A stretch of DNA of 38,229 bases from a virus: the IMG/VR virus record IMGVR_UViG_3300043773_002207, positions 1-38,229 of that record; one strand, 5' to 3'. Below the pieces are notes generated by a model that was not told the origin of the DNA, searched no databases, and saw only the letters and a list, made by a program, of their open reading frames with translations. Below are positions 22,947 through 38,229 of this stretch, in pieces. The position numbers and the translations under genes were made by a program. Within the stretch, counting starts at the first letter, position 1. Every line of letters begins with the position of its first letter.

Positions 22947-25900
22947 TTATTGAACTCCCGCAAAAACATCAATTTGCTGACTACCAAAAGGATTAATAAC
23001 TGGAGTTACAGTACCAGATATACCCATACCAGACATTAAAGATCTTAACCTAGTAGTAACATCTGTTCTATCTGACTGCATATTAAATGTAGGATAACTC
23101 GGATTTACTAAATTAGCTTCTTTTATCTGTTGCGGATAATATCCCATTTGAGACATTTGCAATCCCATAGATTGACCAATCTTAATTTTTACACTATCAA
23201 TATTAGTATTTGGAAGCCACCCTTCCCAAGAAGCGTCGGGCAATTCGTGTCTACTGAAATAATCCGCTAACTCTGGTCGCTTTTCTATATTCATCCCCCA
23301 CGCAGCCTGATATAACCTTCTTTCAAGCCTTCCAGAAGTGGACAATATCTTTTCTCTATCTTCACCAGTTGCATTAATCATGGCTTTGAAATGTTCCCTT
23401 TTTCTTTTAGGAACAGCTAAAGAAACCATATCCATTCTAGCTCTATCGCCTTGGAGCCTACTTAAATCCATACCATACATTGTTCTGCCCGCTGCAGATG
23501 CAAATTCTGCCGCAGCGCCAGAATCCCCAGCTTCTTTTGCTTGTGCTGCAAGCCTGCTATTTTTAACATAATTTAAAATATCAGTATACTCTTCAAGAGC
23601 TAACTGCTTTTTTCTTTCTAAAGGAATAAATCTTTCACCAGTAACAGCTTCAGAAACTTGACTAGCTATACTTGAACTTAAACCTGTCACAGTACCGAGT
23701 GTAGACCCAAAAAGTTTAGCTCTAGGAGTTCTGCCAAACATGCCACCAATGACAGCTAAAGATGCTGCTGCTGTAATTGGATTTGATTGACTTGCTTCAT
23801 AAACCATAGGTTTAATATAGCTTTCAAAAGGCCGTTGCCACTCAGGAAACGTTGAACCGTAAATATTGTTCCGCTCCCAGTCTTCAAGAGCTGTTTTTTT
23901 ACCAAATAATTTATTGGCAACGAAGTTATCAGAGTGGGCGATTAGTTCGCCAGCTCTTTTAAGCTGGAACATAGCTGGCCTCATACCCAATTCTTCAGCA
24001 GAAGAGTTCTTATACTTATAGTCTGAAAACTCATATTTCTGAGTTGTCTTTTCAACTTGATCTCGTATCTCTTTGATCTTCAATCGTTCTTCTGCAGAAA
24101 GATTTCTTTGATTCAAAGTTGCATTGACATTCTTATATTGCTGTGAATAAGGGGCGACATCTCCAAGTATTTCTAGCTGATTTATTAAACCATATCTACC
24201 TGTTTCATCAGATGTGATTTTATTAAATCTTTCATATCCAACACCAGGTAATCTAATTTCACCTTCTTGTATTTTTGTAAATGGATCGCCTCTAGTAAAA
24301 TCTGTGAAATACTCAGCACCAGGTAAAAATGGATACTGCTTACCCATTAAGTTCTGTATTGGGTTAATATAATCAATACCAGTTCTTTCCTTTGGAATGA
24401 ATCTACGTACGATTTCCGAAAATTCAACATTACCAATACCGGTTTGACTTGGCAAAGGTATGTCGCCTAAACCGCCAAGATTCAAATCCCAAAAAGCCCT
24501 GCCAGAACCATAGGCTTTGCTGGCAGATTGTAATACTGATCTTTGTGGCTCAAAATCGCTTTGACCGAAACCAAAAGATTCTCTTAGTGCACCAAATGCA
24601 AATCCATAAATACCTAACATTTCTTGAACCCTATACGCAGTTTCAGATGATTGAGCATAGGTAGATCCTGGCATTATTGGCGATCCTGCGGCAATAATTT
24701 CTGGATTCATAACACCTCTGACTTTAGGCGGTCCAAACTGGTACGCCGACAAGTAGTTGCTATTTATGTTTGAAATACTTTGTGTTACCATTCCGCCAGC
24801 CATATTAGTACTACCTGCTCTAGCGGCAAGATTTGAGTTTGCAGCTGAAATAGTTGAAGCGACCTGACCAGATGAACCGCCTCTATAAGATCCAATGCCT
24901 CCACCAAAACCTTGACCATATCCTCCATAGCTAATTTTGCGAGGATCATATCCAGGACTAGAATAACCTACTGAACTATATGCGCCAGACTGTCCAACTG
25001 GCAAATAAGAAGCTAGACCTTCAGAAACTTCTTGCTCATGCATTAGAACTTGTGGCTTTAAAACTCTTCCCACAGTGGCGTTTAAGATAGGCGTTATTGG
25101 GCCAAACGGACCAGTAAAATACTCACCACTTACTGGGTAGGGTCTTTCATTGTAATGTTTTCTTTCAAATCGATATGGATCAAACGGTCTAAGTGGCGAA
25201 ATGTCATTATAGAATAAAAACTTTTCAGCGGGACTACCATATGTGTCGCTGGTAAACATAGCTCCGCCTTGAAGCTTTCTATACCAAGATGGCCTATAGT
25301 ACATTACTTTTCCACCAACGAATGGCTGATTACCTAAAGGCCAAAAACGACCCTGTCTAATAGGAACTTTCCCTTCGACAAGTTGCTCTTTCTTTTCTTC
25401 GTAAGTCATTCCGCCAGGAGTCAAGCCAGCACCTAACGCCTGAGCCTCAACCGCGCCTCTAGCAACTGCCCCCAACATTAAAGGTGAATAAACTCTTTCA
25501 CCGCGATCATCTCTATCATTAACCATACCACCAAGAGTTCTGTCAACAGTTAAAGCTGTAGTGCCCGCTGCGTACAGCGGTAAAACTCTTTTCATAACCA
25601 TGCCTCTGGCAAATAGATCTAAAGGCCCTTTAAAATCTGTAACATTAAGTTGCAAACCAACTGAACCAAAATACCTATTTAAGCGTTCAACGCCTTGAGA
25701 TGCAGCAATGCTTAATCCGGAGAAACCTTCTGGATCAGAATAGGTAGTCAAACCTAATGCGCTCTTAGTTGCTGCATAAGGATTTCTTCCAAAGACTGTG
25801 CCAAATGTCGGCACAGCGGTGACTGATTGACCAGAACCTAAAGGATCAATTGCTAGATCACTGGTTTGGTACTTTGCAAACTCATACCTTCTTGCAAAAG

Positions 25901-28900
25901 GTGCAATAAGAGGAGAAAATTTTCTACTCATAGTTCCAGATACTTGGCCAATAGTGCCATTAACAAAAGGATCAAATAGACTCTCTAATCCTTTGCGACT
26001 ATTTGAAAACGCAGTGGCTGCCGCTTTAGCGCTAGTAAAAACATCTACTTTATTAGAATAAGTTTTAAACGCGGAATAGTTCATGAGCGATGCTAAACCA
26101 GCAGCTTGCGCCTCAATCATTTGTGACTTACTGATCACACCACTCTTTTGTAATTTATTTACAGCATTTATGACTTCAATAAAAATATCATTGCCCTGTA
26201 AATTTTGTGTAGCCTGATTAACTGTTCCAATATATCTAAAGATTTCCTCTCTTAACTCATCCAATCTAGTTGTGATAGTTGGTGAAGTTTTAGAAAGTTG
26301 AGAAACACTATCTAAATTAGATTGATCTAACAAGTTACTAATTCTAGATTTTGCTGTCTTAATTACTTTTGGATCAATATTCTGCGCTCTTAAGTTTTTT
26401 TCAATTGAGGTGCTTGCTTGCAAAATCTGCTCAGCGAATTCAACAGCTTCTTTTGAAGAAGTTATTGATGATGCTCCACGTCCTAAAAGTTGAAAAAGTT
26501 GTGGATTCTGCTTTTCTAATTCAGCCATCACTTTAGGTGAAGTACCAAATTTAGAAACAGTATCAAAAAATTCACTATATGATTTTAAGAATTGAGGATC
26601 GTTAACATCAAAATTTTGAGATTGCAATCGTTTTGCAATGTTAATTAGATTGTTAGGATCTTTTCGTCTTTGCGAGAATCTCTTAAGAGCACCGAATAAA
26701 GAGTTTGGCTGTTCAGGATCAACACTTAAATGCTTTCTTAGACCACGAAACTTCTTATCGATACCTCCACCAATTTCATCAGTAGTAAAACCTTGTTCAC
26801 CACTTGCATATCGTGTATGCCTAGTCAAAAGATCTGCACTATTACTTGGCATCGCTCGATAAAGTCCAGGTAACGTTGTTCCATAGACTTGATCTGCTCC
26901 AGGCATTCCTTCAAATCTAATTAATTTACCTTTAGTTCCTTTAGATTTCGCCCAAAGATAAAAATCTGCTCTTGTTTGATTCTTTTCCGCACCTAAAAAT
27001 GGTTGTACAGATCTAGAAGAAATATATTGCACTGGAGATCTTTTGGACATCTCGGCAAAAGAATTATAACCAAAAAGGTCAGTTGGATTAAAGCCTAAGA
27101 TTGGGATTTTAAACTCACTAGCAAAAAAATTAGCTGCACGAGTAAAGGTAGATTTTATAGAGGTAAAGTCGACAATTTCGCCAGCTTTAGTTTTATAAAC
27201 GCCATCTAGTCTGGAGATTACAGCAGAGATGCCTATTGGTTCATCCATGCTTTGTCTACCAGCTAGAGCGCCAATTATTTTTCTTTCATCTTCTCTCATG
27301 TGAGAGAAGCGTCCCTTATCAAAGGCTTCAGAAATACTTAATGGTTGAAGGCCAAAAAGGTTATATCCACCACCAAAAACACCTGATGTCATTTTTTTAT
27401 TTCTAATTAAAAATGCTCTTAAATCAGTAAAGTTATTTGGATCAATACCGCGACTTGCTAACTGCTTATTAATCAAACTATCAGCAAAAGCTAAGCCATC
27501 ATCATCTGCTAATTTAATACCAAGAGTTTGTGCTGTTTTTCTTTGTAAGAAGTTTTGTTTTGCATAAGTATTTGGTTGAATATAATCTTGGAATAAAGCT
27601 TTTTTAGGCTTTAAAACACCTTCACCGATATTTAACAAATCGGATCTATACATCTTATTCCACTGGCTAGCAGTTTTATTTCTTAAAGTTTTTTGAAATT
27701 CTCTTGTAACAAAAATATCTCTAGCATCATCAATAGATTGTTTTAAAACATTTGGTTGCAGAGACTCAGATAAACTTTTACCATTTCGGATGCCCCCATA
27801 CCTTTTTAGTACTTGCCCGAAAAAATCATCTGATGCGCTAGCTGCCGAATTAGCTGACGGGTAAATTTTAGTTTTACCAATTGTAAAAATAGTTGTAGAA
27901 TCAGCACCGGAAGTTGGTATACGAACTTTTGCATTATTAACAAATTTATTAATTTCAGCAGGATCAATTCCTAAATTTTTTGAAATTAATTGCTTTTCAA
28001 TTAGATCTTTAAAAGCTGTTTGTTGCTGACCTAGAAAGAATTCAGATCTTTTGAAAGAAGAGTTATCAGGACCGCCACCACCAAGAATTCTCATCCCTTC
28101 AGCAAAAGAAGAAAGTCTACTTGAATGCATAGACTGTATTCTGTTAATTGCTTTACTTAAAGAGTCTTCAGTAACTGAAATTCTTTTAGTATTCGAAATT
28201 ACCTTATTAAATGCAATAGAGCTTTCCATTGCATCATATGCTTTACCTATAAGTCGGAATTCATCTCTGCCAGCCTTAACTGCACCAGGCATACCTTTAA
28301 ATGAGGGTGCGAGTTCAAAAATTGAAGCGTACTTCATTGAACCGTCATCATATCCGCCAAATATCGATTTAAAAGTAGTTTTAGCTATTTCCATTCTACT
28401 AGACGTTTGCGCTCTAGTTTTATTGATTGCAGATCCAACACCGCTTCTTAGTTGTGAAAGATTTTGGACAAACTCATTTTGGTTTTTATACGCATCCGTT
28501 GCAGCAGATAGTGCGCTAGAGGTTTGTGCAGATTTTTTTAGAAACTTATTAGTTACACTAGCAAAATCTTGACCGACTTCTGAAAGAATATCAGATAAAT
28601 CAGTAAAACCTTTATAGGCGGCTTTTTGATATGGGGTTATCCTCCTCATATCATTTACAGCATACTTTAACGAGTGCAAAGAATTTTTTGCCTGATTTGC
28701 AGTTGCTCCCGCGAATTCAAATGGCAGCATCATAGTAGCAATATTTGTTAAAGAGGTTTTAGTAAAATCAGCTACAACGTCAACAGGATTATACCAATTT
28801 ACTTTACGCTTTGATTCGTCTCTATTTCCAAATAGTGGATCGGTTACGACCCTCTGCACACCATACATCGCCGGAAGCTCATACGGGAGCCTCCTACCGG

Positions 28901-29459
28901 CTCTAATTAACCTCTGCTGAAGCTCATCTCTATAAGACCAAACTGCTGCAGACGTTTCCTGTAAAAAATCCGCACCAGCATCTTGAATATCTTGATTCGT
29001 AAAAAACTTATATCCATGGATCTCATCCACACTGCCAGTGGTTAAAGTCGGTCCATGTTTTCCAGGAAGTTCAAAAACGATTTTACTATAAGGATCTTCT
29101 GTTCCAACAGATCTACTTAAACCCTGTAATTCATCTAAATGTCTACGTATATCAGTAACAGATTTAACAATAGATGTAGAAAAATTAGACTCACCTAACT
29201 TAGCTGCATTATCAGCGCCATCTTGTAAATATTTAGCGAGTTTTAATCCACCCTTTTTAACAACTTTAGAGGCAACCATCGTTCCTGCCATAGTCGCAGC
29301 AGAAACCGCAAAGAAGCGCATGATTGGGTGTCCATTTAAAGCACTGGCAATATAGCCAGAGTTAGGGGCTACGCCCTCTTTTTCGCCCTCATTTGTAGGG
29401 ACATCTCTAGATGTTACACTAAAGCCTAAACTATGATTTGGACCAGGATCACGCAACAT
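22947..29459 (-). CDS. Tape-measure protein candidate
   Basis: At 2170 residues this is the second-largest protein and follows two assembly chaperones, the usual place for the tail tape measure. The N-terminus has a hydrophobic segment (about 45-67, FFAVSAATMAGTMVASKVV). Long helical, Lys/Ser/Ala-rich stretches fill about 80-1250. A more globular, aromatic region follows at about 1340-1480 (motifs such as ERKHYNERPYPVSGEYF). A Gly/Tyr/Ser-rich low-complexity stretch occupies about 1487-1533, and two Gly/Ala-rich hydrophobic segments lie at about 1890-1943. By the rule of thumb of about 0.15 nm per residue, the full length would span roughly 325 nm if fully extended. The globular part argues that only some of it is a ruler. 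The start has a GGAG ribosome binding site. Tape-measure assignment rests mainly on position, size and helicity. Confidence 0.65.
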   Translation of the reverse strand: MLRDPGPNHSLGFSVTSRDVPTNEGEKEGVAPNSGYIASALNGHPIMRFFAVSAATMAGTMVASKVVKKGGLKLAKYLQDGADNAAKLGESNFSTSIVKSVTDIRRHLDELQGLSRSVGTEDPYSKIVFELPGKHGPTLTTGSVDEIHGYKFFTNQDIQDAGADFLQETSAAVWSYRDELQQRLIRAGRRLPYELPAMYGVQRVVTDPLFGNRDESKRKVNWYNPVDVVADFTKTSLTNIATMMLPFEFAGATANQAKNSLHSLKYAVNDMRRITPYQKAAYKGFTDLSDILSEVGQDFASVTNKFLKKSAQTSSALSAATDAYKNQNEFVQNLSQLRSGVGSAINKTRAQTSSRMEIAKTTFKSIFGGYDDGSMKYASIFELAPSFKGMPGAVKAGRDEFRLIGKAYDAMESSIAFNKVISNTKRISVTEDSLSKAINRIQSMHSSRLSSFAEGMRILGGGGPDNSSFKRSEFFLGQQQTAFKDLIEKQLISKNLGIDPAEINKFVNNAKVRIPTSGADSTTIFTIGKTKIYPSANSAASASDDFFGQVLKRYGGIRNGKSLSESLQPNVLKQSIDDARDIFVTREFQKTLRNKTASQWNKMYRSDLLNIGEGVLKPKKALFQDYIQPNTYAKQNFLQRKTAQTLGIKLADDDGLAFADSLINKQLASRGIDPNNFTDLRAFLIRNKKMTSGVFGGGYNLFGLQPLSISEAFDKGRFSHMREDERKIIGALAGRQSMDEPIGISAVISRLDGVYKTKAGEIVDFTSIKSTFTRAANFFASEFKIPILGFNPTDLFGYNSFAEMSKRSPVQYISSRSVQPFLGAEKNQTRADFYLWAKSKGTKGKLIRFEGMPGADQVYGTTLPGLYRAMPSNSADLLTRHTRYASGEQGFTTDEIGGGIDKKFRGLRKHLSVDPEQPNSLFGALKRFSQRRKDPNNLINIAKRLQSQNFDVNDPQFLKSYSEFFDTVSKFGTSPKVMAELEKQNPQLFQLLGRGASSITSSKEAVEFAEQILQASTSIEKNLRAQNIDPKVIKTAKSRISNLLDQSNLDSVSQLSKTSPTITTRLDELREEIFRYIGTVNQATQNLQGNDIFIEVINAVNKLQKSGVISKSQMIEAQAAGLASLMNYSAFKTYSNKVDVFTSAKAAATAFSNSRKGLESLFDPFVNGTIGQVSGTMSRKFSPLIAPFARRYEFAKYQTSDLAIDPLGSGQSVTAVPTFGTVFGRNPYAATKSALGLTTYSDPEGFSGLSIAASQGVERLNRYFGSVGLQLNVTDFKGPLDLFARGMVMKRVLPLYAAGTTALTVDRTLGGMVNDRDDRGERVYSPLMLGAVARGAVEAQALGAGLTPGGMTYEEKKEQLVEGKVPIRQGRFWPLGNQPFVGGKVMYYRPSWYRKLQGGAMFTSDTYGSPAEKFLFYNDISPLRPFDPYRFERKHYNERPYPVSGEYFTGPFGPITPILNATVGRVLKPQVLMHEQEVSEGLASYLPVGQSGAYSSVGYSSPGYDPRKISYGGYGQGFGGGIGSYRGGSSGQVASTISAANSNLAARAGSTNMAGGMVTQSISNINSNYLSAYQFGPPKVRGVMNPEIIAAGSPIMPGSTYAQSSETAYRVQEMLGIYGFAFGALRESFGFGQSDFEPQRSVLQSASKAYGSGRAFWDLNLGGLGDIPLPSQTGIGNVEFSEIVRRFIPKERTGIDYINPIQNLMGKQYPFLPGAEYFTDFTRGDPFTKIQEGEIRLPGVGYERFNKITSDETGRYGLINQLEILGDVAPYSQQYKNVNATLNQRNLSAEERLKIKEIRDQVEKTTQKYEFSDYKYKNSSAEELGMRPAMFQLKRAGELIAHSDNFVANKLFGKKTALEDWERNNIYGSTFPEWQRPFESYIKPMVYEASQSNPITAAASLAVIGGMFGRTPRAKLFGSTLGTVTGLSSSIASQVSEAVTGERFIPLERKKQLALEEYTDILNYVKNSRLAAQAKEAGDSGAAAEFASAAGRTMYGMDLSRLQGDRARMDMVSLAVPKRKREHFKAMINATGEDREKILSTSGRLERRLYQAAWGMNIEKRPELADYFSRHELPDASWEGWLPNTNIDSVKIKIGQSMGLQMSQMGYYPQQIKEANLVNPSYPTFNMQSDRTDVTTRLRSLMSGMGISGTVTPVINPFGSQQIDVFAGVQ

Positions 29460-29474
29460 TTAAATCTCCAAAAA

Positions 29475-30104
29475 TTACTTCATGCCCCACAGCTTTTGAG
29501 CAATAGGATCATCATAAACTGCCTCGCCCGGCATCTTCGATAGATTATGTCTTGCGGCGGATCTCTTCTTTTCCTCTTCTTGTTCATCTGGATCAATTAA
29601 TTGCAGTGATACATTATTTGGCTCAATACCATTAATTGCTTGTTGGATTTCAATAATTTTCTCTGATAACGCCACTTTTTCTGCCAATTCGCTAAAAGTC
29701 ATGGCCTCTAAATCTTCAGGATTATATGAACTAATAGTAGCGAGAACAAAAGCTTTCATAAGATTTTTTACTTCATTTGCTTCAATTCTTTTTTCTTCTA
29801 AAATTCTTTTAGCCAACTTGACTGATGTAATACCGGAAATATCCAATACTTTTTCAGCCAATGCAGAAACATTGCCAGGAGGAATCTTATTAATATCAAA
29901 ATCCTCAGGATAGACAACGCTATACTGCAAAATATAGTCTTCAATGTCGGCAGATGAATAATCGTATAAATCCTTTAAATAAAGGATCTTTTTATACTCG
30001 TAAAAAGTTAGTTCTCGAAAAACTACTTCAATACCTTTGATTTCTGCACTATAAACATTGCCATATTTTTCTTTAAAAGAAAAAATTAGATTAGAGTCTT
30101 CCAT
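29475..30104 (-). CDS. Tail assembly chaperone, second of two paralogues
   Basis: The 209-residue protein lies directly upstream of the tape-measure candidate. Its first 100 residues resemble the upstream neighbour: KEKYGNVYSAEIKGIEVVFR with LTFYEYKKI here against KKQFGDIYVTSISFDKHVVW with LNRNEYKQI there, then a shared PEDFD/PKFDK region and AEKVLDISGI against AQEVLEASGF. The C-terminal half adds a Glu/Lys-rich helical part (about 110-175) and a positively charged tail absent from the neighbour. Proteins at this position in long-tailed phages (the G/GT type) bind the tape measure and recruit tube subunits. Here the two proteins are separate genes three bases apart rather than a frameshifted pair. 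Function is inferred from position and paralogy. Confidence 0.75.
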   Translation of the reverse strand: MEDSNLIFSFKEKYGNVYSAEIKGIEVVFRELTFYEYKKILYLKDLYDYSSADIEDYILQYSVVYPEDFDINKIPPGNVSALAEKVLDISGITSVKLAKRILEEKRIEANEVKNLMKAFVLATISSYNPEDLEAMTFSELAEKVALSEKIIEIQQAINGIEPNNVSLQLIDPDEQEEEKKRSAARHNLSKMPGEAVYDDPIAQKLWGMK

Positions 30105-30107
30105 AAA

Positions 30108-30683
30108 TTACAATTGTCTAACCTCAAGTGCCACGAAACCAGAGGCTTCAAGAACTTCTTGAGCAATCAGAGAAGGCATCCCGGCCATCGCACCTGAAAG
30201 AGATTTCTTATCAAACTTTGGGAAAAGAATACATAGCTCAGCGATGGTTTCTTCGTTCCACATATTTGCTTCAGCGGATGTAAGACTACCTGCTTGGACT
30301 AGTTGCTCCATTTTTTTAACAATCTGCTTGTATTCGTTTCTATTTAAAACGCGCCAAACAACATGCTTATCAAAAGAAATAGAAGTAACATAAATATCAC
30401 CAAATTGCTTCTTCCATTCCTTAATTTGACCAGCTACAGGACCATCTTCCCAAATAGGCTCGTTATCATCTAAATCTTCAACGGGGCGAAAATCTTCTTC
30501 ATCTTCTTCAGTGGTTTGATTGAATTGAATAGGATCTTCAGCTCTTACATCTACAGCATCGTCGTCTTCAGTAATTTCTAATGTTAGAAAATCCTCAACA
30601 ATTACATTATCTTCAAGTGCTAAATCTCTCACTTCAGCATCCTGTGCAGGCTGTGTAACTACAACTTTTCTTTGATTACTCAT
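30108..30683 (-). CDS. Tail assembly chaperone, first of two paralogues
   Basis: The 191-residue protein starts with about 80 very acidic residues (many Asp and Glu, for example EITEDDDAVDVRAEDPIQFN) and ends with a compact domain from about residue 85 (EWKKQFGDIYVTSISFDKHV) that is related to the downstream protein. The acidic half is probably disordered. A GGAG ribosome binding site precedes the start, and a 36-base gap separates it from the upstream tube-like gene. It is likely a structural-assembly chaperone for the tape measure and not part of the mature virion. The acidic extension could mimic a charged surface or keep the partner soluble; that is a guess. Confidence 0.75.
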   Translation of the reverse strand: MSNQRKVVVTQPAQDAEVRDLALEDNVIVEDFLTLEITEDDDAVDVRAEDPIQFNQTTEEDEEDFRPVEDLDDNEPIWEDGPVAGQIKEWKKQFGDIYVTSISFDKHVVWRVLNRNEYKQIVKKMEQLVQAGSLTSAEANMWNEETIAELCILFPKFDKKSLSGAMAGMPSLIAQEVLEASGFVALEVRQL

Positions 30684-30719: not shown

Positions 30720-31643
30720 TTACTGACGGTAACTTGTACTTGCAGAAGATGTATAACTCTCGCTTGTATCGTTATCAGACTCATTAACAGTGATGAGATT
30801 TCTAACAAAACTTAAATCAGTAGAAGTATGATAGAAATCTCTAGCAATAAACTGATAAACTTCAGCTAGTGGTTGACCACCAGGACTGAATGAAGTTGTC
30901 ATATTCATTAAGTTAACTTGCTGAATAATAGTTTTCATTGGACTCGCCATATTATCGACTCTAACAGTCCGTTGATTAACATCAGAATAAATCATTCTAT
31001 CTAAATTATCCGAAATAGCTACTTCTTCTTTACCTGCTGCCATAAATGGTGTTAGGGCAGTTTCTTCTACATTATATAATATCACAAAATTAAATGGTGG
31101 ATGTGCGCTAAAAATATTTTTATCAGAAATACCTGGATCAGATGTGATTCTATCTAATTGACTATATGCCCAGTATTTTTGAACGTTTTTTTCGTCTTCC
31201 GCAGTAAATCCTTCTGGAGTTAACTTAGATATAATACTGGAATATTCACTTGGTACTTGATCTTTTTGTCTATTTTTGGCTGCCAATGCCCTATTCTTGG
31301 CTGCTGCTTCTAATAACTCAGTCATTCTACGAGGATGTCTTGTAAAGACAGCAATTTCGCCTGAAATGATTCTTGTACCAAACATAACAGCATCATGATT
31401 ATATGACCAAAAACCATATAAAGGTTGCTTTTCTTGACGAACTGAGTACGCAAAAGAAGCTATATCTAACTCATCCTGTGGATCAAATAATCCATCAATA
31501 AAAATTTTTACATCTTCACCACTAAAATAGTAATCATAATAATTATTAAACCTATTAGAAGTATCTGAGGCATTTCCAGCCCAAATTCTATCTATATTAT
31601 TATCAAGTGGATCAAAAGAATTATTATTGGGAATATTAGGCAT
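30720..31643 (-). CDS. Divergent tail-tube-family protein (third paralogue)
   Basis: The 307-residue protein keeps the tube-family outline seen in the two genes upstream. Its sequence FSGEDVKIFIDG, then ASFAYSVRQEKQPLYGFWSY (about residues 62-81) and FGTRIISGEIAVFTRH matches FSGADIVATFGG, SFSVTREKAPIY and GIAGSLIFTVFD of the major tube. HPPFNFVILYNVE corresponds to IPPFDITITFVNE. An insertion with Ala/Lys-rich helix (about 110-165) and an extended C-terminus (SFSPGGQPLAEVYQFIARDF) set it apart. Contractile tails often use tube-fold proteins as tube initiators or at the ends, so a cap or baseplate-tube adaptor is plausible. The ribosome binding site is weak, in contrast to the major tube, which agrees with a minor component. 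Confidence 0.7.
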   Translation of the reverse strand: MPNIPNNNSFDPLDNNIDRIWAGNASDTSNRFNNYYDYYFSGEDVKIFIDGLFDPQDELDIASFAYSVRQEKQPLYGFWSYNHDAVMFGTRIISGEIAVFTRHPRRMTELLEAAAKNRALAAKNRQKDQVPSEYSSIISKLTPEGFTAEDEKNVQKYWAYSQLDRITSDPGISDKNIFSAHPPFNFVILYNVEETALTPFMAAGKEEVAISDNLDRMIYSDVNQRTVRVDNMASPMKTIIQQVNLMNMTTSFSPGGQPLAEVYQFIARDFYHTSTDLSFVRNLITVNESDNDTSESYTSSASTSYRQ

Positions 31644-31655
31644 GTGAAAATCCGT

Positions 31656-32414
31656 TTACGGTTTAAAGGTAATTACTCTATCAACCATATTAGACTGATA
31701 AAGTTTTGCTAAATTATCTACAACAGTATCTCCAAAAATATTATTTGAAATAGAAATATCTCTTGCAACTAATTCAGGATCGCGAGTAGAGTTTGGAACC
31801 TCTGTAGTTAATTTAACCATTGGCTGAATTCCTCTAGCCATAAAAGTATAAGTTTGCTCTACAATTAGGTCATCAATAGATATTGTTTGACCTTCATCTA
31901 CAATAGTAACACCAAATATCTTCATTTTTGAACCCTGACCATACTCATTGAAAAAGGTTAAAATAATATCAAATGGTGGCAACATATCTGCTAAAGGGGC
32001 AAAGAATCCATTTTTTCTTTCCAAAAAATCTCTATATTGTTTTATTCTATAAAAAACATATTCATTAAAAACTGTGAAAATTAAACTACCTGCGATAGTC
32101 CTGGATCCTTTGACAAAGCCTCTAGGATTAACATGTCCTAGTGTTCTTACTGGCGAATTTTCTCTGTGTATAGAATAAGAGATAGTTTGTATTTCACCAA
32201 GTTCAATCACATCACCATTACTTACAACTTTTCCATTCTCTCCAATAACAGGAACTAATATAGTAGCTACAGCGTCTGCTCCGGAAAAGGCGATATTCTC
32301 CATAGTGTATGAAGAGTCGTAATTACCTTTATAAATTTTAGGATCTTCAGATTCAGTTACTGGAGGTTTAACAATCTTAATTGGATTAGCTTCATAAATA
32401 CCATCGCTAGCCAT
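31656..32414 (-). CDS. Minor tail-tube paralogue (second tube-family protein)
   Basis: The 252-residue protein is clearly related to the 225-residue tube protein upstream: FSGADAVATILVP, then ISYSIHRENSPVRTLGHVNP, GSRTIAGSLIFTVFNEYVFY, MLPPFDIILTFFNEYGQG, IFGVTIVDEGQTISIDDLIV and EQTYTFMARGIQPM match the corresponding stretches in order. It has a longer N-terminus (about 30 residues) and a Pro/Val-containing loop near residues 50-60. The gene begins after the hairpin that follows the major tube and has only a weak ribosome binding site, so it is probably made in smaller amounts. Its likely place is an end ring of the tube or the tube-baseplate junction, by inference. Confidence 0.8.
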   Translation of the reverse strand: MASDGIYEANPIKIVKPPVTESEDPKIYKGNYDSSYTMENIAFSGADAVATILVPVIGENGKVVSNGDVIELGEIQTISYSIHRENSPVRTLGHVNPRGFVKGSRTIAGSLIFTVFNEYVFYRIKQYRDFLERKNGFFAPLADMLPPFDIILTFFNEYGQGSKMKIFGVTIVDEGQTISIDDLIVEQTYTFMARGIQPMVKLTTEVPNSTRDPELVARDISISNNIFGDTVVDNLAKLYQSNMVDRVITFKP

Positions 32415-32439
32415 TGTTCACAACACTTTCTTGAATATA

Positions 32440-32473
32440 GGTATGCGCACGGAATAGTTCCCGTGCGCATACC
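32440..32473 (-). promoter_or_regulatory. Perfect 13-bp intergenic hairpin after the major tube gene
   Basis: GGTATGCGCACGG at 32440-32452 and CCGTGCGCATACC at 32461-32473 are perfect reverse complements around an 8-base loop. The stem is GC-rich in an AT-rich region and lies in the 84-base gap between the major tube gene and its paralogue. No run of U follows on the minus strand, so it is not a standard intrinsic terminator. Attenuation, RNA processing or 3'-end protection of the sheath/tube message would all fit. Confidence 0.8.
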
Positions 32474-32498
32474 AATCCGAACATTAGTTTAATACCTA

Positions 32499-33176
32499 TC
32501 AGCCGCCGAAGCGAATAATATCAGATTCTAAGCCTTCTGGTCTAATGCCAACTAGGTTGGCTGGATCAGCTTCCACTAGAGCATCTCTGTTGATGGTATA
32601 CATTGGGCCAAGTTCTCTTGCGACATAGGTCATTGTTTCTTCAATCACGATATCATCCATTGATGCGCCTGAACCCTCATTGAGTAGCTCTACACCAAAG
32701 ATTGACCGAACTGCTGATTGACCATACTCGTTTACGAAAGTAATTGTAATGTCGAAAGGAGGGATTTGATCCGCATAGTGTGGAACCTTTGATGTTACGC
32801 CAATACCGTAACGATCTGACTCAACAATACCAAATTTATGATCGGCATCCCCGGGTAGAGTATTGTGGTTTCTTGTCCAGAATACTTGAGTTGGGTTACC
32901 GCCTTCACGGTTCTTATCTAGCATTGTGTATAGAGCTGGCCGATCAAAGACTGTGAATATCAATGATCCTGCGATGCCTCTTTTTCCACGTGAGAAAGAA
33001 CGAGGATTAGGTGAACCCATGGTATAAATCGGTGCTTTTTCTCTGGTTACTGAGAAAGTAATACCTGAAAGTGCACCTATCTCTACACCACCAAAGGTAG
33101 CCACAATATCTGCCCCAGAGAAAGTAGTGTAAGTATTAAGGTATTTGTTAACTGCTGTATAATTTTCAGCTGCCAT
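32499..33176 (-). CDS. Major tail tube protein
   Basis: The 225-residue protein has the outline of contractile-tail tube subunits: FSGADIVATFGGVEIGALSG at the start, TREKAPIYTMGSPNPRSFSR, then GIAGSLIFTVFD, a loop around residues 80-110, PPFDITITFVNEYGQSA, and IEETMTYVARELGPMY near residue 195. A strong GGAGG ribosome binding site sits 10 bases before the start, and the gene follows the sheath gene by 28 bases. Together with the less AT-rich coding sequence this marks it as the abundant tube. It would stack as hexameric rings inside the sheath. Two paralogues follow downstream. The assignment relies on family pattern, order and expression signals. Confidence 0.85.
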   Translation of the reverse strand: MAAENYTAVNKYLNTYTTFSGADIVATFGGVEIGALSGITFSVTREKAPIYTMGSPNPRSFSRGKRGIAGSLIFTVFDRPALYTMLDKNREGGNPTQVFWTRNHNTLPGDADHKFGIVESDRYGIGVTSKVPHYADQIPPFDITITFVNEYGQSAVRSIFGVELLNEGSGASMDDIVIEETMTYVARELGPMYTINRDALVEADPANLVGIRPEGLESDIIRFGG

Positions 33177-33204: not shown

Positions 33205-34452
33205 TTATATATTAATAGAGATTTGAATCTCAATTGACTTCAGTTCAAAAGCGGGAGTCAAGACAAGATCAACTATTGCTTTATTCTGATTTGGAATATA
33301 TGTGACAGCAAAATCGCTTGCCAACAGAGCGCCTACTATTTGCATACCACGAAGAGCTGAAGTAATAGCTGTTTCCATTGCATTTCTAACTTGAATATTG
33401 GAAGGCTCTCCCACAAACTTTTGGCAAACTTGACGGACAACTAGGGCAGCCTCGTCAATAATTCTTTTAGTTGATAACCGAGTATAATCAGAGGTTGACT
33501 GTGCAAAAGTTACACCTTCGCCAAATACAGGTATCTTATTAAAGTTGATGACTACCGAGTTAATACCTTTACCACCAAGAGTATCTTGCTGAGTGCGCGT
33601 GGGTGCATATCTTAGTGCTTCAACGTTATAAATTGACTTATTAACAATTGAGCTGAAAGAAGGTAGGCGGCTCATTGTTGCTGCTAGGAACGCTGCACCA
33701 TTACTGTAGCCAAAGTTGCTAGGAGTCGCGCCAGTTGAGTTGTAGTTAGTTGGCTTAAGTTCTGCTGCAACTATTGTTACATATGGGCCAACATCTTTAA
33801 ATAGAGTGCCAGCATTGCGATCAGGTAGACCAGGAAGCGCAAGGTGTGCGGCAATCTGTGATGGAGTCATTTTCTCAGTAGTGCTTAGATACGGTTTAAT
33901 ACCCATTACTGCAACGCAGGGATTCGTATTCTGGGAGATATCTTTTACTGCACTAGCAACTTTATATGCCCAGTTTGAAGTAATAGTTGTTGTATTATCT
34001 GCATGGAAACCAAACTCTGGATCGTCACCGGGTGTTGCGGGCGACTGCCAATCCAGAGGATGCCCACCACGACCCCATGGAACAATGATGTCAGGTATTG
34101 CAGCTTCTGCTGCTGCGAATGCTGCTGCGAAAACATCACTACCACCACTGGTTAGAGTGCCTGTATTATGAGCAAATACAGTGTTGCTTGGCAGCGGCAC
34201 TAGAAATAGTCTTTCTGCGCCAGCGGTCACAAGTTCAACAAATGCTCTATGTATATCCGAGCCATTACCAAAAGCGGTGATTACATCAGCTTCGTTAGTA
34301 GCTCTATAAACATCTAAATCGGGAATCCCGCCAGTATTATCAGCAGTTGACCGCTTCGCAATGGCAACAACTCTTGGACCAATAGGCGAATCCTGTCTAG
34401 ACACGCTATAGAAACGATCCTTAATTAATGTAGTTACTCCTGGTATAGCCAT
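33205..34452 (-). CDS. Major tail sheath protein
   Basis: The 415-residue protein opens with the sheath-type MAIPGVTTLIKDRF and has the alternating alpha/beta pattern of sheath proteins: TNEADVITAFGNGSDIHRAF then AGAERLFLVPLP (about residues 50-85), a variable insertion with an Ala-rich helix (about 100-115), and VVINFNKIPVFGEGVTF followed by RIIDEAALVVRQVCQKFVGE (about 325-345) in the conserved C-terminal domain. The last strands (VDLVLTPAFELKSIEIQISI) would weave subunits together. An unusually strong GGAGGT ribosome binding site and a 96-base leader precede the start. It is shorter than T4 gp18 but normal for compact sheaths. Contraction of this polymer drives the tube into the host. Confidence 0.9.
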   Translation of the reverse strand: MAIPGVTTLIKDRFYSVSRQDSPIGPRVVAIAKRSTADNTGGIPDLDVYRATNEADVITAFGNGSDIHRAFVELVTAGAERLFLVPLPSNTVFAHNTGTLTSGGSDVFAAAFAAAEAAIPDIIVPWGRGGHPLDWQSPATPGDDPEFGFHADNTTTITSNWAYKVASAVKDISQNTNPCVAVMGIKPYLSTTEKMTPSQIAAHLALPGLPDRNAGTLFKDVGPYVTIVAAELKPTNYNSTGATPSNFGYSNGAAFLAATMSRLPSFSSIVNKSIYNVEALRYAPTRTQQDTLGGKGINSVVINFNKIPVFGEGVTFAQSTSDYTRLSTKRIIDEAALVVRQVCQKFVGEPSNIQVRNAMETAITSALRGMQIVGALLASDFAVTYIPNQNKAIVDLVLTPAFELKSIEIQISINI

Positions 34453-34463
34453 CTTTTTTCTAG

Positions 34464-34469
34464 ACCTCC
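34464..34469 (-). promoter_or_regulatory. Strong ribosome binding site of the sheath gene
   Basis: A complete GGAGGT on the coding strand lies 11 bases before the ATG at 34452. It is the best match to the anti-Shine-Dalgarno sequence that I saw in the window and fits a highly expressed sheath. Confidence 0.75.
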
Positions 34470-34493
34470 AAATATGGATTTTTAAAATCTTTG

Positions 34494-34540
34494 ATTATAG
34501 TAATGGAAACCGTATAAAAATAAACTAACAATGAATTATA
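34494..34540 (-). promoter_or_regulatory. Candidate late promoter region upstream of the sheath gene
   Basis: Two exact TATAAT hexamers occur on the minus strand, at 34494-34499 and 34535-34540, inside the 96-base gap before the sheath gene. No convincing -35 box is present at 16-18 bases. TATAAT is easy to find by chance in AT-rich DNA, so this rests on placement in the longest intergenic gap and the strong downstream ribosome binding site. Confidence 0.35.
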
Positions 34541-34548
34541 CGATTAAT

Positions 34549-35415
34549 CTATATATTTGGAGTTGACTGATCTAAATCAATAATTTGGACTTCGACATCC
34601 TCATAATTTGGAGTAGCCAACTCTCTGGTATCGGTAGACCTAGAGCCAAGCCAGGTTCTGATATCAATTCTAATTTTTTCAATTCTTTCATTTTTAATTG
34701 CAAAAGTTTTTTCAGTTGTTAACATATATGTAACAGTTCTTTTATGAATATTCTTATTCTTTCTATTCACTTCAGAATCTGAAAGTCTCCGAGAGTAAAC
34801 TAAATCTGATGCACCCGCTGCTTTAAAAATTGGAGTATATTCCAACATAAAATCTTCAAATGATTCAATAATCTGATCACATAAAATAGCTGTATCTAAA
34901 TCATCTTTAACAGATTTAGGATTATCCCCCTGCAAAGTATTGGCTTTGCTCATAACTGTAAACGCAACTATATTCTGAAACTTTTGACCATAAACTGTAA
35001 TTGAATTACTCATAACATTTTGTCTCATACGAGGTTTTGGTTCCATTGTATGAGATTTTCTTAATTCTAAAGAATAACCAATAATTGCTGGATACTCGTC
35101 AAAAACGTCTGCACTCATTGGTTCTGGGACAGAAGTTATATTCCCTATTTCATCTTCAGAATCAACATCTGTAAAAGAAGAAAAGCTCTCTCTATTAATT
35201 CCAGTTGGAAGAATCGGAATTAAAGGATGGCTTTCTTCCCATACTTTTTTAACTAAACTAATAAATTCCAAATAATTTAATGATCCAGAATATATCTCTT
35301 CCACACCTTCAATCTCTAATCTGACTCCTGGAGACTGAAGCACGCCACTTCTTAATGGATTTTGAAATCTTTCTGAAGTAGAAACAGCAGGAAATTCTCT
35401 ATTAACATAAACCAT
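34549..35415 (-). CDS. Neck / tail-terminator-like protein
   Basis: The 288-residue protein is a mixed alpha/beta protein without membrane segments. The part from about residue 190 (IIESFEDFMLEYTPIFKAAG) continues with SRRLSDSEVNRKNKNIHKRT and VTYMLTTEKTFAIKNERIEK before a strand-rich end. The arginine-rich, strand-containing region resembles neck or terminator proteins of large myoviruses in general character, but I cannot name a family with confidence. It starts one base after the stop of the upstream sheath-like gene and uses a GGAGG located in that gene's last codons, so the two are translated together. Position between neck genes and the major sheath supports a tail-terminator or collar role. 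Confidence 0.55.
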   Translation of the reverse strand: MVYVNREFPAVSTSERFQNPLRSGVLQSPGVRLEIEGVEEIYSGSLNYLEFISLVKKVWEESHPLIPILPTGINRESFSSFTDVDSEDEIGNITSVPEPMSADVFDEYPAIIGYSLELRKSHTMEPKPRMRQNVMSNSITVYGQKFQNIVAFTVMSKANTLQGDNPKSVKDDLDTAILCDQIIESFEDFMLEYTPIFKAAGASDLVYSRRLSDSEVNRKNKNIHKRTVTYMLTTEKTFAIKNERIEKIRIDIRTWLGSRSTDTRELATPNYEDVEVQIIDLDQSTPNI

Positions 35416-35416
35416 T

Positions 35417-37012
35417 TTATGCCTCCGGTCCAGCAGCTAATGAAAAGTTAATCCTTTTAAGACCAAGAGCTGACAGTACAGATATATGGAAAACTAACTT
35501 CCCTCTATCACTTGGATCTACTTCAATATTAAAAGAGTAGTCGATAATTATATTATTACTTTTCATTTGCATTAACATTTTATAAACAGTATCAGAAACT
35601 CTATCGTAACCGAACTTACCTATTGCCTCTAACGCAACAGATTTTATTCTAGATACTAAAGACGCAATTAGTCTCATCTGTGCAGCTTTAGATAGAGTTG
35701 AATTTTTATTCGCTAAGGTATATTCGTTACTCGTATAAACCTCATAGGGTACTGATCTTTTAGTTTTCTTACCTCTATATACAGTATTAATTCCAAGATT
35801 ATCTAATTCTTGTAGCTCGTATTGAGTTAGATCGCTTCCAAATACTGAAAGTGCTCCTGGAATTCTCGATCTAATTAATCCCATATTTAACGGCATAGCC
35901 GCAAACAGTCCTGCAAAACTAGCTGCAAGCGTTGAGGTGTACGATATTTTTAGCTGATCATGTTTAGATACCACTTCTCCATAAATCGGAACAATGAATC
36001 TGCCATTATCGCTTAATATAGAGCCATTTAAATTATAGGATGTCAATTTATTTACTAAAACCGAATTAGCTTTAATTTCATTAATGTCTTCAGATTTTAC
36101 TCCACCAGATCTTGAACCAATAATGCCGATCTGAATAAAGCCAGTAGTGTTATGAAAATCTGCACAATAACTAGCCAACTGGGTTACAAAATCAACTCCA
36201 CCTGTTTTAATAATTGAAGCCTCTAAAGGAACAACATAATCAATATAGTCTAATTCTTTCAAAATATTATACGTAACAGCTAATCTATCATAGTATCGTT
36301 GATAAAAAGTTATACTGTTTGGTGTAGCCATATTAAGATTAAAAATAGTTGAAGAAACTAATCTGTCCTCATATTTATCTACATATTCACTCATTGGCGC
36401 AGCGGCCATTATAAATATATCTCTAGCCCCAGCTGCATACGCGTCAAATACACCTCTTAATAATGGACTACCTAAATCTGCCCCAAGTAAATCTACCGCA
36501 CTTTGAATTGACCTAATCTTATAAATATCATTCAATGCAATACCATCAGCGTGTCCGATTAATAGAACGGTATTAGTATTTGATCTATTAAGATCTTCAT
36601 AGGTAGCTTTATAATTTACGATAGAAGTGCTGTTATTTGAAATAACAATAGGATTTAATGTTACTGCATCAGTTTTAACTACAAAAGAAGAACTGACTGA
36701 AATTGGAATTTCATTGCTAGAGGTCTGTGCAAAAACTGTATAGACACCTTCATGTAATGAAGAAGGGATTTTATACCTAAATCTGTATTGACCCCTTCCA
36801 GTTCTTGTGATAGAAACTTTATCAGAAATATCTGAATTATTTCTTAAAAAAGAAAAAGGTCCGTCTACAATTGGCCCAGAATTATAATCGCCTCTTCTAA
36901 CTGAAAAGTAAATATCTACTGGAGTGGCTAAAATTGCTGGATCATAAACGTTGTTTTCCGCAACAAAAATAAAATCAAAGTTAATAAACTGACCTCTAAC
37001 ACCTGGAATCAT
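35417..37012 (-). CDS. Second sheath-family protein with an N-terminal Ig-like domain
   Basis: The 531-residue protein starts MIPGV, like the major sheath, but then has a beta-sandwich of about 110 residues (VDIYFSVRRGDYNSGPIVDG, GQYRFRYKIPSSLHEGVYTV) of Ig-like character. From about residue 140 sheath-type patterns appear: NTVLLIGHADGIALND, SAVDLLGADLGSPLLRGVFD, YAAGARDIFIMAAAP, and a C-terminal domain with QMRLIASLVSRIKSVALEAI and closing strands (GKLVFHISVLSALGLKRINF). It lies in the neck region ahead of the terminator-like gene and away from the major sheath. It may form the first ring at the collar, or a sheath decorated by its Ig domain. Sheath kinship is fairly clear; the location in the virion is inferred. 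Confidence 0.75.
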   Translation of the reverse strand: MIPGVRGQFINFDFIFVAENNVYDPAILATPVDIYFSVRRGDYNSGPIVDGPFSFLRNNSDISDKVSITRTGRGQYRFRYKIPSSLHEGVYTVFAQTSSNEIPISVSSSFVVKTDAVTLNPIVISNNSTSIVNYKATYEDLNRSNTNTVLLIGHADGIALNDIYKIRSIQSAVDLLGADLGSPLLRGVFDAYAAGARDIFIMAAAPMSEYVDKYEDRLVSSTIFNLNMATPNSITFYQRYYDRLAVTYNILKELDYIDYVVPLEASIIKTGGVDFVTQLASYCADFHNTTGFIQIGIIGSRSGGVKSEDINEIKANSVLVNKLTSYNLNGSILSDNGRFIVPIYGEVVSKHDQLKISYTSTLAASFAGLFAAMPLNMGLIRSRIPGALSVFGSDLTQYELQELDNLGINTVYRGKKTKRSVPYEVYTSNEYTLANKNSTLSKAAQMRLIASLVSRIKSVALEAIGKFGYDRVSDTVYKMLMQMKSNNIIIDYSFNIEVDPSDRGKLVFHISVLSALGLKRINFSLAAGPEA

Positions 37013-37014
37013 AA

Positions 37015-37386
37015 CTACTTCTCTCTACTTGCTCCAGCAATCCAGTACACTATTTTTCCAAACTTACCTCTTACTGGTGTCACTGCTTGAATTGTAAATA
37101 TCGAATACGAACGACTATTTTTCATAGTCATATCTTCATAAATTCTGTCTCCCTCTTTGGGATTTACGCTTCCTTCAAAATAATATACAAATTCAAAATT
37201 TGTACTAATACCTTCATCGTATTGATCGGAAGATTTGGCATTCATTGAACCAGACTGACCAACCTGTCTTGTGGTAACTTTTTCAAATTCATTATTATGA
37301 TTACCATTAGCTAGCATTCTTTGCAAATGAACGTCATGACCCCAATCTCTTAATATCTTTCTAAAAGACTTAGCTGCATCAATCAT
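37015..37386 (-). CDS. Head-closure / neck-like protein
   Basis: The 123-residue protein begins with an amphipathic helix followed by WGHDVHLQRML and then turns into a compact beta-rich body (NFEFVYYFEGSVNPKEGDRI, SYSIFTIQAVTPVRGKFGKI). The pattern, in particular strands around 'K-E-G-D-R-I' and the length, fits small head-closure (stopper) proteins that sit between connector and tail. The start overlaps the end of the upstream gene by 8 bases (ATGATTGA), a sign of coupled translation. Next-door location to a connector-like protein and a sheath-like protein agrees with this. Family assignment is from pattern and position. Confidence 0.6.
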   Translation of the reverse strand: MIDAAKSFRKILRDWGHDVHLQRMLANGNHNNEFEKVTTRQVGQSGSMNAKSSDQYDEGISTNFEFVYYFEGSVNPKEGDRIYEDMTMKNSRSYSIFTIQAVTPVRGKFGKIVYWIAGASREK

Positions 37387-38229
37387 AGTTTCTTAACTTT
37401 CGCGAAGGCATTGGATCAGATCTTGAAGTTATCTCTTGCCCTTGACCATATATATCTTTATCTGTAGGATATACATCTCTGCCAAGTTGGGTTACACTAT
37501 ATTCTGTTGGTAAACCTTTTGGAGTCATTGTTGCAGCTCTGACCTTGTTTGCCAAAAGCTCTTTACGCAAAGCGGCAGCAATCTGACACCACGAAGATGC
37601 GTTATCTCTTGATACTGAATTTCTAGGAGTGACCCTATTTTCTATAGTTAAATCACCTAATCTCAGCATCACGTTATCATCAGCGCCATACGCATATGTT
37701 CTACTTAGTTCACATGCTACAGCAGCTCTAATATACTCAATAGCTTTAAAATTTAAAGCTGCGTCATCTGCTGATAATCCTAAAATTGTTTTAACTTCAA
37801 GTGAAAAGTTATAAACTATCTCACCAATCTCTAGTAAAGATGCATCTGGAAATAAGGATAGCAAACTTTCAGGATCTATATATAACGGACTTAACTCGGT
37901 ACCAAATATAATAATTTCATCATTTTTAAGAGTTGCAGTTGGTTTCCTAGAAGCTGATGAAGAGCTTACATAGACCTTTTGCTGAATTATAAATGGAGGA
38001 CTATTCAAAATATACACAGTAAAGATTGAAGTGTATTCTCCAATTTCATTTGGAGTAAAGTCATAAAAATATATATCATCACCAGAAGTAAGTGCTAATT
38101 GATTATCAATTATAATTATATCATTATCTTTTTTAACTGTTAATCTTACTTCATCAGGATTTACACCAACTAACTGACCAGTTTCGTCGGTATACTTTAA
38201 AGTAATATTTACTCTTACTTCATCACCTA
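37379..38229 (-). CDS. Head-tail connector-like protein with N-terminal Ig-like domain (5' end outside the window)
   Basis: The frame is open to the right window edge, with 282 residues visible, so the true start lies outside. A GTG at 38017 would give a shorter protein, but the frame upstream of it reads as good coding sequence (ITLKYTDETGQLVGVNPDEV, then LTVKKDNDII and DIYFYDFTPNEIGEYTSIFT) and forms a beta-sandwich of Ig-like type. After a Ser-rich linker the C-terminal part (about 120-230 of the visible portion; SLLSLFPDASLLEIGEIVYN, AIEYIRAAVACELSRTYAYG) is helical, as in head-tail connector proteins. The ending is polar. It is the first cistron visible and probably belongs to the neck. 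The Ig part resembles that of the neighbouring sheath-like protein. Confidence 0.65.
   Translation of the reverse strand, partial: GDEVRVNITLKYTDETGQLVGVNPDEVRLTVKKDNDIIIIDNQLALTSGDDIYFYDFTPNEIGEYTSIFTVYILNSPPFIIQQKVYVSSSSASRKPTATLKNDEIIIFGTELSPLYIDPESLLSLFPDASLLEIGEIVYNFSLEVKTILGLSADDAALNFKAIEYIRAAVACELSRTYAYGADDNVMLRLGDLTIENRVTPRNSVSRDNASSWCQIAAALRKELLANKVRAATMTPKGLPTEYSVTQLGRDVYPTDKDIYGQGQEITSRSDPMPSRKLRNYD

What the first reader, a model, noticed from the sequence alone, without database searches (positions are those of the whole stretch)
33205..37012. Two sheath-family proteins, one decorated with an Ig-like domain
Both the 415- and 531-residue proteins begin with an IPGV motif and have sheath-type C-terminal domains, but they lie on either side of the terminator-like gene. 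The longer one carries an Ig-like module. Either the sheath is made of two subunits, or the neck has its own sheath-like ring.
Basis: partly seen in the sequence, partly recalled or inferred. Interest (0 to 1): 0.55.

Follow-up and report, generated by a model that had tools for sequence, protein, structure and literature searches.

The report
Second sheath protein in phage neck
This large phage and its relatives carry two contractile-sheath proteins, and the one with the Ig-like domain looks like a scarce part of the neck, perhaps a ring that ties the spring-like tail sheath to the head, rather than half of the sheath itself.

Summary
Both proteins are real sheath-family proteins: models of the 531-aa protein (A) and the 415-aa protein (B) match solved sheaths at Z about 30 and 29. 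A adds an N-terminal Ig-like beta-sandwich on a disordered linker. One detail is wrong: 'IPGV' is the conserved sheath arm in B, but a chance string in A (1 of 73 relatives). The order stopper-like > A > terminator-like > B held in 88 of 88 distinct viral-contig regions; sheath > terminator-like > sheath also occurs in isolated phages MTATph1 and KLEB27-3. B and tube1 form their own cassette: promoter-like leader, covarying hairpin, shared codon bias, slow evolution. A is packed among neck genes and evolves fastest; its arm is its least conserved part, B's arm is B's most conserved. Best reading: B and tube1 are the contractile tail; A is a low-copy, probably head-proximal sheath-fold ring anchoring the sheath to the neck and displaying Ig modules. 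Position and copy number are inferred, not shown. Two-component sheaths (PaBG) and end-specific sheath rings (injection systems) are known, so this is a new variant of a known kind.

The parts
35417..37012 (-). Sheath A, 531 aa: Ig-like domain + linker/arm + sheath-fold core
   Evidence: phrog_279 tail sheath E 2e-9; AF2 pLDDT 83.7; VIA Z up to 30.1 against solved sheaths
36674..37012 (-). Ig-like beta-sandwich of A (residues 1-113); its 'MIPGV' start is not conserved in relatives
   Evidence: strands in the model; 1 of 73 A proteins has PG in its first 40 residues; the enlarged A proteins inspected carry their insertions in this domain or the following linker
36575..36673 (-). Linker and sheath N-arm of A (residues 114-146), least conserved part of A
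   Evidence: pLDDT <50 at residues 117-145; mean pairwise identity 0.285
35420..36574 (-). Sheath core of A (residues 147-531)
34549..35415 (-). Tail-terminator-like protein, 288 aa, with conserved C-terminal tail ATPN..NIIDL.Q.ATPN
   Evidence: phrog_20284 E 5e-13; shared with MTATph1 and KLEB27-3; identity by position, not confirmed by PDB profile search
34453..34548 (-). Leader of B; conserved promoter-like element at 34496-34524
33205..34452 (-). Sheath B, 415 aa, probable main contractile sheath
   Evidence: phrog_16991 E 6.5e-24; AF2 pLDDT 81.1; VIA Z up to 28.9; PGV arm invariant
32499..33176 (-). Tube1, probable main tail tube protein
   Evidence: phrog_9206 E 5.7e-51 (labelled major head protein; its KLEB27-3 relatives are annotated tail tube); slowest evolving of the seven genes
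32440..32473 (-). Hairpin between tube1 and tube2 (terminator or attenuator-like)
   Evidence: strong fold in 74 of 74 loci; 11 of 15 pairs with compensatory changes in 16 sequences
31656..32414 (-). Tube2, tube paralogue of a distinct conserved type
   Evidence: phrog_9206 E 2.8e-43; same type in MTATph1 and KLEB27-3
30720..31643 (-). Tube3, distant tube-like protein
   Evidence: phrog_33096 3.7e-8, phrog_9206 0.0034; relatives in MTATph1 and KLEB27-3
37015..37386 (-). Stopper-like neck protein, 123 aa
   Evidence: phrog_38102 E 0.0057 (weak); MTATph1 homologue 6.4e-9 with the family profile; directly before A in 88 of 88 regions
37379..38227 (-). Adaptor-like neck protein with an N-terminal strand-rich domain (ORF runs off the window end)
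   Evidence: ORF; homologues in 222 ORFs of the fetched loci; its first domain is not detectably related to the Ig-like domain of A

Best explanation
SHOWN: the phage encodes two sheath-fold proteins, in an order conserved across its relatives. INFERRED from anatomy: B with tube1 is the bulk contractile sheath and tube. A is a low-copy component whose sheath domain forms a specialised ring, probably the head-proximal one, between the neck/terminator and the first ring of B. It would present the same kind of beta-strand joint that sheath subunits offer one another, so that the top of the sheath stays anchored to the neck during contraction. Its Ig-like domain, sometimes enlarged by extra modules, points outward as a neck decoration that may touch host surfaces or stabilise the collar. 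The location, the ring and the strand-exchange step are inference. The fold, the gene order and the separate expression signals are computed results.
For: Sheath fold of A over residues ~145-518: Z 27-30 against sheaths of T4-like, phi812, pyocin, AFP/PVC and Listeria entries. Order stopper-like>A>terminator-like>B in 88 of 88 distinct regions; no B-anchored locus from the viral contigs lacked A. Sheath > terminator-like > sheath also in MTATph1 and KLEB27-3, whose two upstream copies form a clade (99/91). In these three lineages the downstream sheath has a PG arm and the upstream one lacks it. Packing: stop-A -23 nt and A-term +1 nt median, against 102 nt before B. Promoter-like element before B in 63 of 74 loci with at most 3 mismatches and nowhere else in the same loci, a looser form readable in the other 11. 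Hairpin after tube1 in 74 of 74, mean -29.9 against -11.6 and -10.9 kcal/mol at two control places; 11 of 15 pairs covary. GC3: B .316, tube1 .336, A .222. Identity at matched B divergence of 0.55-0.65: tube1 .76, B .61, A .43. Arm conservation: B .756, A .285. Extra sequence lies before the A core in 7 of 7 enlarged A proteins inspected, while B stays at 392-445 aa. Known logic of the joint: the tail terminator's C-terminal arm augments the top sheath ring in Milano and phiCD508 (passages).
Against: No virion, proteomic or structural data on A in any member. Gene order is only a proxy for position. If the terminator-like protein already caps the top ring of B, as in Milano and phiCD508, A is not needed there. 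The best structural matches of A include chains from baseplate entries of PVC and AFP, tied with many others. Codon and divergence contrasts come from related genomes and are not independent. Orthology of A with the upstream sheaths of MTATph1 and KLEB27-3 is unresolved: the free tree puts A outside the B+up+down clade, and A+up as one clade is merely not rejected (p-AU 0.27).
Confidence: 0.55

Rival explanations
1. Two-component contractile sheath: A and B co-assemble throughout the tail, as proposed for phage PaBG, with A adding an Ig-like layer on the outside.
For: PaBG has two tail sheath proteins of 38% identity, both found in its virion (passages and table). A keeps the whole sheath core.
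Against: A lacks B's promoter-like leader, shares neither its codon bias nor its rate, and its arm is not conserved. A and B are far more diverged than the PaBG pair: profile methods are needed to align them (20% identity over 333 columns).
Confidence: 0.12
2. Baseplate-proximal ring: A is the first sheath ring laid on the baseplate, like the minor sheath proteins of extracellular injection systems.
For: Chains from PVC and AFP baseplate entries are among the best structural matches of A (6j0n_V, 9qgl_4A, 6rao_E). Minor sheath proteins at one end are a known design (recalled for AFP and PVC).
Against: Those matches are tied within 1 Z with ordinary sheaths and appear for B as well. A lies among neck genes in 88 of 88 regions.
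Confidence: 0.14
3. Neck sleeve or collar: A forms sheath-like rings around the neck that are not stacked on the contractile sheath, comparable in role to the Milano collar.
For: A lies between stopper-like and terminator-like genes and carries variable outward modules. Milano shows that a multi-ring collar can link sheath and neck (passages).
Against: The Milano collar protein was not compared here, and nothing shows that A surrounds neck proteins. The sheath core of A is well conserved, which suits stacking on a sheath.
Confidence: 0.13

Closest known systems
Moorella phage MTATph1 (OR602862) and Bacillus phage vB_BauM_KLEB27-3 (OM634661)
   Same: Sheath > terminator-like > sheath > tube paralogues in this order; both sheaths already annotated as tail sheath by the depositors
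   Different: Upstream copies are 357 and 621 aa and no Ig-like part was shown in them; sequence identity to A is very low; no paper on either was found under its name
PaBG two-component tail sheath (PMC7412058)
   Same: Two sheath paralogues in one phage
   Different: 38% identical, genes far apart (gp76 and gp213), a late duplication (passages); gp76 is flanked by a tube gene and a hypothetical gene
Extracellular injection systems (AFP, PVC; Bacteroidales BIS with two sheath and two tube proteins, PMC7394362)
   Same: Several sheath and tube paralogues in one machine
   Different: No head or neck; extra sheaths sit next to the main sheath gene (AFP/PVC order recalled)
Agrobacterium phage Milano gp13 collar (PMC10491603)
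   Same: A protein linking the top of the sheath to the neck
   Different: Described as a 15-mer collar of four rings; no sheath homology tested here
Phage G (PMC8570332)
   Same: Large Bacillus phage with two tube candidates
   Different: One sheath described, gp178; no hit to the A or B profile in the two fetched stretches; its sheath often detaches from the neck, and the authors propose a missing upper anchor (section)

Membership tests
Phage tail sheath fold (A) | sheath core fold | tested here: met
   VIA Z up to 30.1; the ten best rows align 306-341 residues at rmsd 2.7-5.2 A, list filled with sheath chains; Foldseek E down to 1.4e-15
Phage tail sheath fold (A) | sequence match to sheath families | tested here: met
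   phrog_279 tail sheath 2e-9; Pfam sheath models below cut-off
Contractile sheath subunit (A) | conserved N-terminal arm of the inter-subunit mesh | tested here: not met
   PG arm motif absent in 40 of 40 arms located out of 73 proteins; arm region is the least conserved part (0.285). Some accepted sheaths (Mu L, phage K) also lack PG near the start, so the motif alone is not decisive
Contractile sheath subunit (A) | high copy number along the tail | not testable with these tools
   indirect expression signals only
Contractile sheath subunit (B) | sheath fold, conserved arms, high-expression signals | tested here: met
   expression itself not measured
Ig-like domain (A, residues 1-113) | beta-sandwich of about 7-8 strands | tested here: met
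   eight strands in the model, pLDDT by ten-residue block 74-90 over residues 1-110
Ig-like domain (A, residues 1-113) | match to a known Ig family or structure | tested here: inconclusive
   no Pfam hit; weak cellulosomal scaffoldin hits E 0.2-0.3; domain not folded or searched alone
PaBG-type two-component sheath | both proteins abundant in the virion | not testable with these tools
   no proteomics
Tail terminator (34549-35415) | terminator fold or homology to a solved terminator | tested here: inconclusive
   PDB profile search gave only unrelated weak hits; phrog_20284 virion structural protein

The most novel reading that the evidence does not exclude
A widespread lineage of large contractile phages has kept, since before its members diverged, a dedicated neck sheath: a second sheath-fold protein encoded between stopper and terminator that caps the contractile sheath, anchors it to the head, and serves as a platform for Ig-like and other outward modules.
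Probability: 0.5. Interest if true: 0.65.

Novelty: new variant of a known kind. Interest (0 to 1): 0.5.

Why it matters
How the top of a contractile sheath is held to the head is an open point: phage G loses this hold and its authors call for work on the anchor. A dedicated sheath-fold protein among neck genes, conserved in many viral contigs and with counterparts in isolated phages of Moorella and Bacillus, would make that question directly testable. It would also show that sheath paralogues in phages can specialise by position, as in injection systems, and that the neck can act as a display site.

Tried and rejected
Shared IPGV motif: rejected for A. Homology between the Ig-like domain of A and the N-terminal domain of the adaptor-like neighbour: not supported (hhalign probability 1.6%, score 17.9; one of 30 shuffles scored higher). 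Orthology of A with the upstream sheaths of MTATph1 and KLEB27-3: unresolved; trees of so diverged C-terminal domains carry long branches. Search for A in one genome per prokaryote species: 8 pattern matches, no relative confirmed; viral-contig scans with the MTATph1 and KLEB27-3 upstream sheaths: no relative confirmed. Phage 0305phi8-36: second and fifth hits of A in the viral structure library are A7KUR1 (530 aa) and A7KUR3 (717 aa), unnamed by the tool; I recall these accessions as 0305phi8-36, which would be another sheath-X-sheath case, but its record was not in the collection, so it is not used as evidence. Generic promoter and terminator scans of the window were no better than shuffles; the signals came from comparison of relatives. 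Pfam and PDB did not identify the long insert of the L018 protein. Literature: searches for KLEB27-3, MTATph1, 'two tail sheath', 'two tail sheath proteins', neck plus sheath-like terms, sheath terminator, sheath paralogue and second-sheath phrases showed, in their listings, no description of a neck-encoded second sheath; subscription papers, including the PaBG sheath paper of 2018 (seen only as a reference), were not seen.
Full report
WHAT IS THERE. The window is a 38-kb virus record. All genes in question are on the minus strand, in the order adaptor-like (38227-37379, runs off the end), stopper-like (37386-37015), sheath A (37012-35417), terminator-like (35415-34549), sheath B (34452-33205), tube1, tube2, tube3, two chaperone-like genes, then long tail genes. 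PHROGs calls B tail sheath (6.5e-24) and A tail sheath (phrog_279, 2e-9); Pfam sheath models stay below their cut-offs for both.

FOLD. With alignments of 47 and 36 sequences, AlphaFold2 gave models of pLDDT 83.7 (A) and 81.1 (B). Against solved structures, A matched sheath proteins (Foldseek best E 1.4e-15, phage 812 neck-tail junction; VIA-align Z up to 30.1), and B likewise (Z up to 28.9). A begins with eight strands (1-113), then a disordered stretch (117-145), then the sheath core. Profile comparison aligns A with B over 333 columns, score 64.4; 40 shuffled controls reached at most 24.8.

'IPGV' is the conserved sheath arm in B (PGV in 36 of 36 in the alignment; PG near the start in 72 of 73, the exception not inspected). 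In A it is seen in 1 of 73 proteins, the contig identical to the window. A's own arm sits behind the Ig-like domain and has no PG in the 40 arms I could locate by pattern out of 73.

CONSERVED ORDER. Viral-contig scans with A, B and their alignments (the last two returned the best 80 of 193 and of 185) gave loci that reduce to 88 distinct A-to-B regions. All 88 have stopper-like > A > terminator-like > B. Of 224 sources with a hit, 215 have one A and one B; seven hold A only and the other two are the named phages. The seven A-only loci were brought in by A and are 7 to 11.5 kb long, with little sequence after A. Two isolated phages show the same plan: MTATph1 (sheath 357 aa, terminator-like, sheath 769 aa) and KLEB27-3 (sheath 621 aa, terminator-like, sheath 502 aa). 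In all three lineages the downstream sheath has a PG arm and the upstream one lacks it. PG is not universal in sheaths: T4 gp18 and phage G gp178 have it, Mu L, phage K and PaBG gp76 do not. The upstream copies of MTATph1 and KLEB27-3 group together (99/91), so their duplication appears older than their split; A falls outside in the free tree, and joining it to them costs 7.3 log units, p-AU 0.27. Orthology is therefore open, although the position is shared.

SEPARATE EXPRESSION SIGNALS. Median gaps are -23 nt before A, +1 after A, 102 before B, 27 between B and tube1, 76 between tube1 and tube2. A 29-base bipartite element, promoter-like, lies in the leader of B in 63 of 74 loci (at most 3 mismatches) and nowhere else on either strand of those loci (1.29 Mb), with none in letter-shuffled copies of 40 of them. 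The other 11 show a looser TTTGTTTT / TTACTATA-like form on reading. After tube1, 74 of 74 loci fold a strong hairpin (mean -29.9 kcal/mol, against -11.6 after B and -10.9 after the terminator-like gene). In 16 aligned examples chosen from 45 distinct hairpins, 11 of 15 pairs show changes on both sides. B and tube1 also share higher GC3 (.316.336; the other five genes .222 to .265), and B is closer to tube1 codon use than A in 60 of 73 loci. These loci are related, so the counts are not independent.

RATES AND DECORATION. Where B is 55-65% identical (1779 pairs), mean identities are tube1 .76, B .61, tube2 .565, terminator-like .504, tube3 .494, stopper-like .479, A .43. Within B the arm (.756) and the hairpin with C-arm (.736) are the most conserved parts; within A the arm region is the least (.285) and the N-terminal half of the core the most (.532). 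Seven enlarged A proteins were inspected, and in 7 of 7 the extra sequence lies at window residues 1-140, before the core. The largest, 1205 aa on one contig (L018), has about 660 extra residues with three stretches matching phrog_5313. B stays at 392-445 aa.

MECHANISM. In Milano the tail terminator's C-terminal arm adds a strand to the top sheath ring, and in phiCD508 the neck-proximal sheath stays attached to the terminator after contraction (passages). A sheath-fold protein encoded next to the terminator could extend this joint: its own sheet could receive the terminator arm and its C-arm could enter the first B ring. The conserved C-terminal tail of the terminator-like protein is compatible with this but does not prove it. 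Arms that are poorly conserved, fast change and outward modules suit a scarce end piece better than a lattice subunit. Phage G, with one sheath described and no hit to our profiles in the fetched stretches, often loses the sheath-neck link, and its authors suggest a missing upper anchor (passages and section). T4 keeps its sheath at the neck without a known second sheath, so A is not a general requirement.

COMPARISON AND NOVELTY. Two sheath proteins in a phage are known from PaBG (passages), two sheath and two tube proteins from Bacteroidales injection systems (passages), and minor end sheaths from AFP and PVC (recalled). What I did not find described is a second, decorated sheath-fold protein fixed between stopper-like and terminator-like genes. 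I rate it a new variant of a known kind, with the ring position at 0.55.

Noticed in passing
window 34496-34524 (minus strand) and leaders of B in relatives: A 29-base promoter-like bipartite element conserved before the main sheath gene, absent elsewhere in the fetched loci; possibly a late promoter of this lineage.
   Followed up: partly
window 32440-32473 (minus strand): Strong covarying hairpin after tube1 in all 74 loci examined; likely terminator or attenuator that separates the main tube gene from its paralogues.
   Followed up: yes
window 30720-33176: Three tube-like genes; tube1 and tube2 types are each recognisable in MTATph1 and KLEB27-3, so tube paralogues may be as old as the sheath pair.
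   Followed up: partly
window 29475-30683: Two tandem genes share a phrog_29362 segment, resembling the two-gene, no-frameshift tail chaperone form described for 0305phi8-36 gp143/gp144 (passages of PMC2147016).
   Followed up: no
L018 3410-7027: Sheath A of 1205 aa with about 660 extra residues, three stretches of which match phrog_5313 (unknown function), inserted in the Ig-like domain.
   Followed up: partly
window 6982-17874, 18336-22946, 22947-29459: Very long ORFs (3630, 1536 and 2170 aa) downstream of the tube genes; the 2170-aa one is in the tape-measure position.
   Followed up: no
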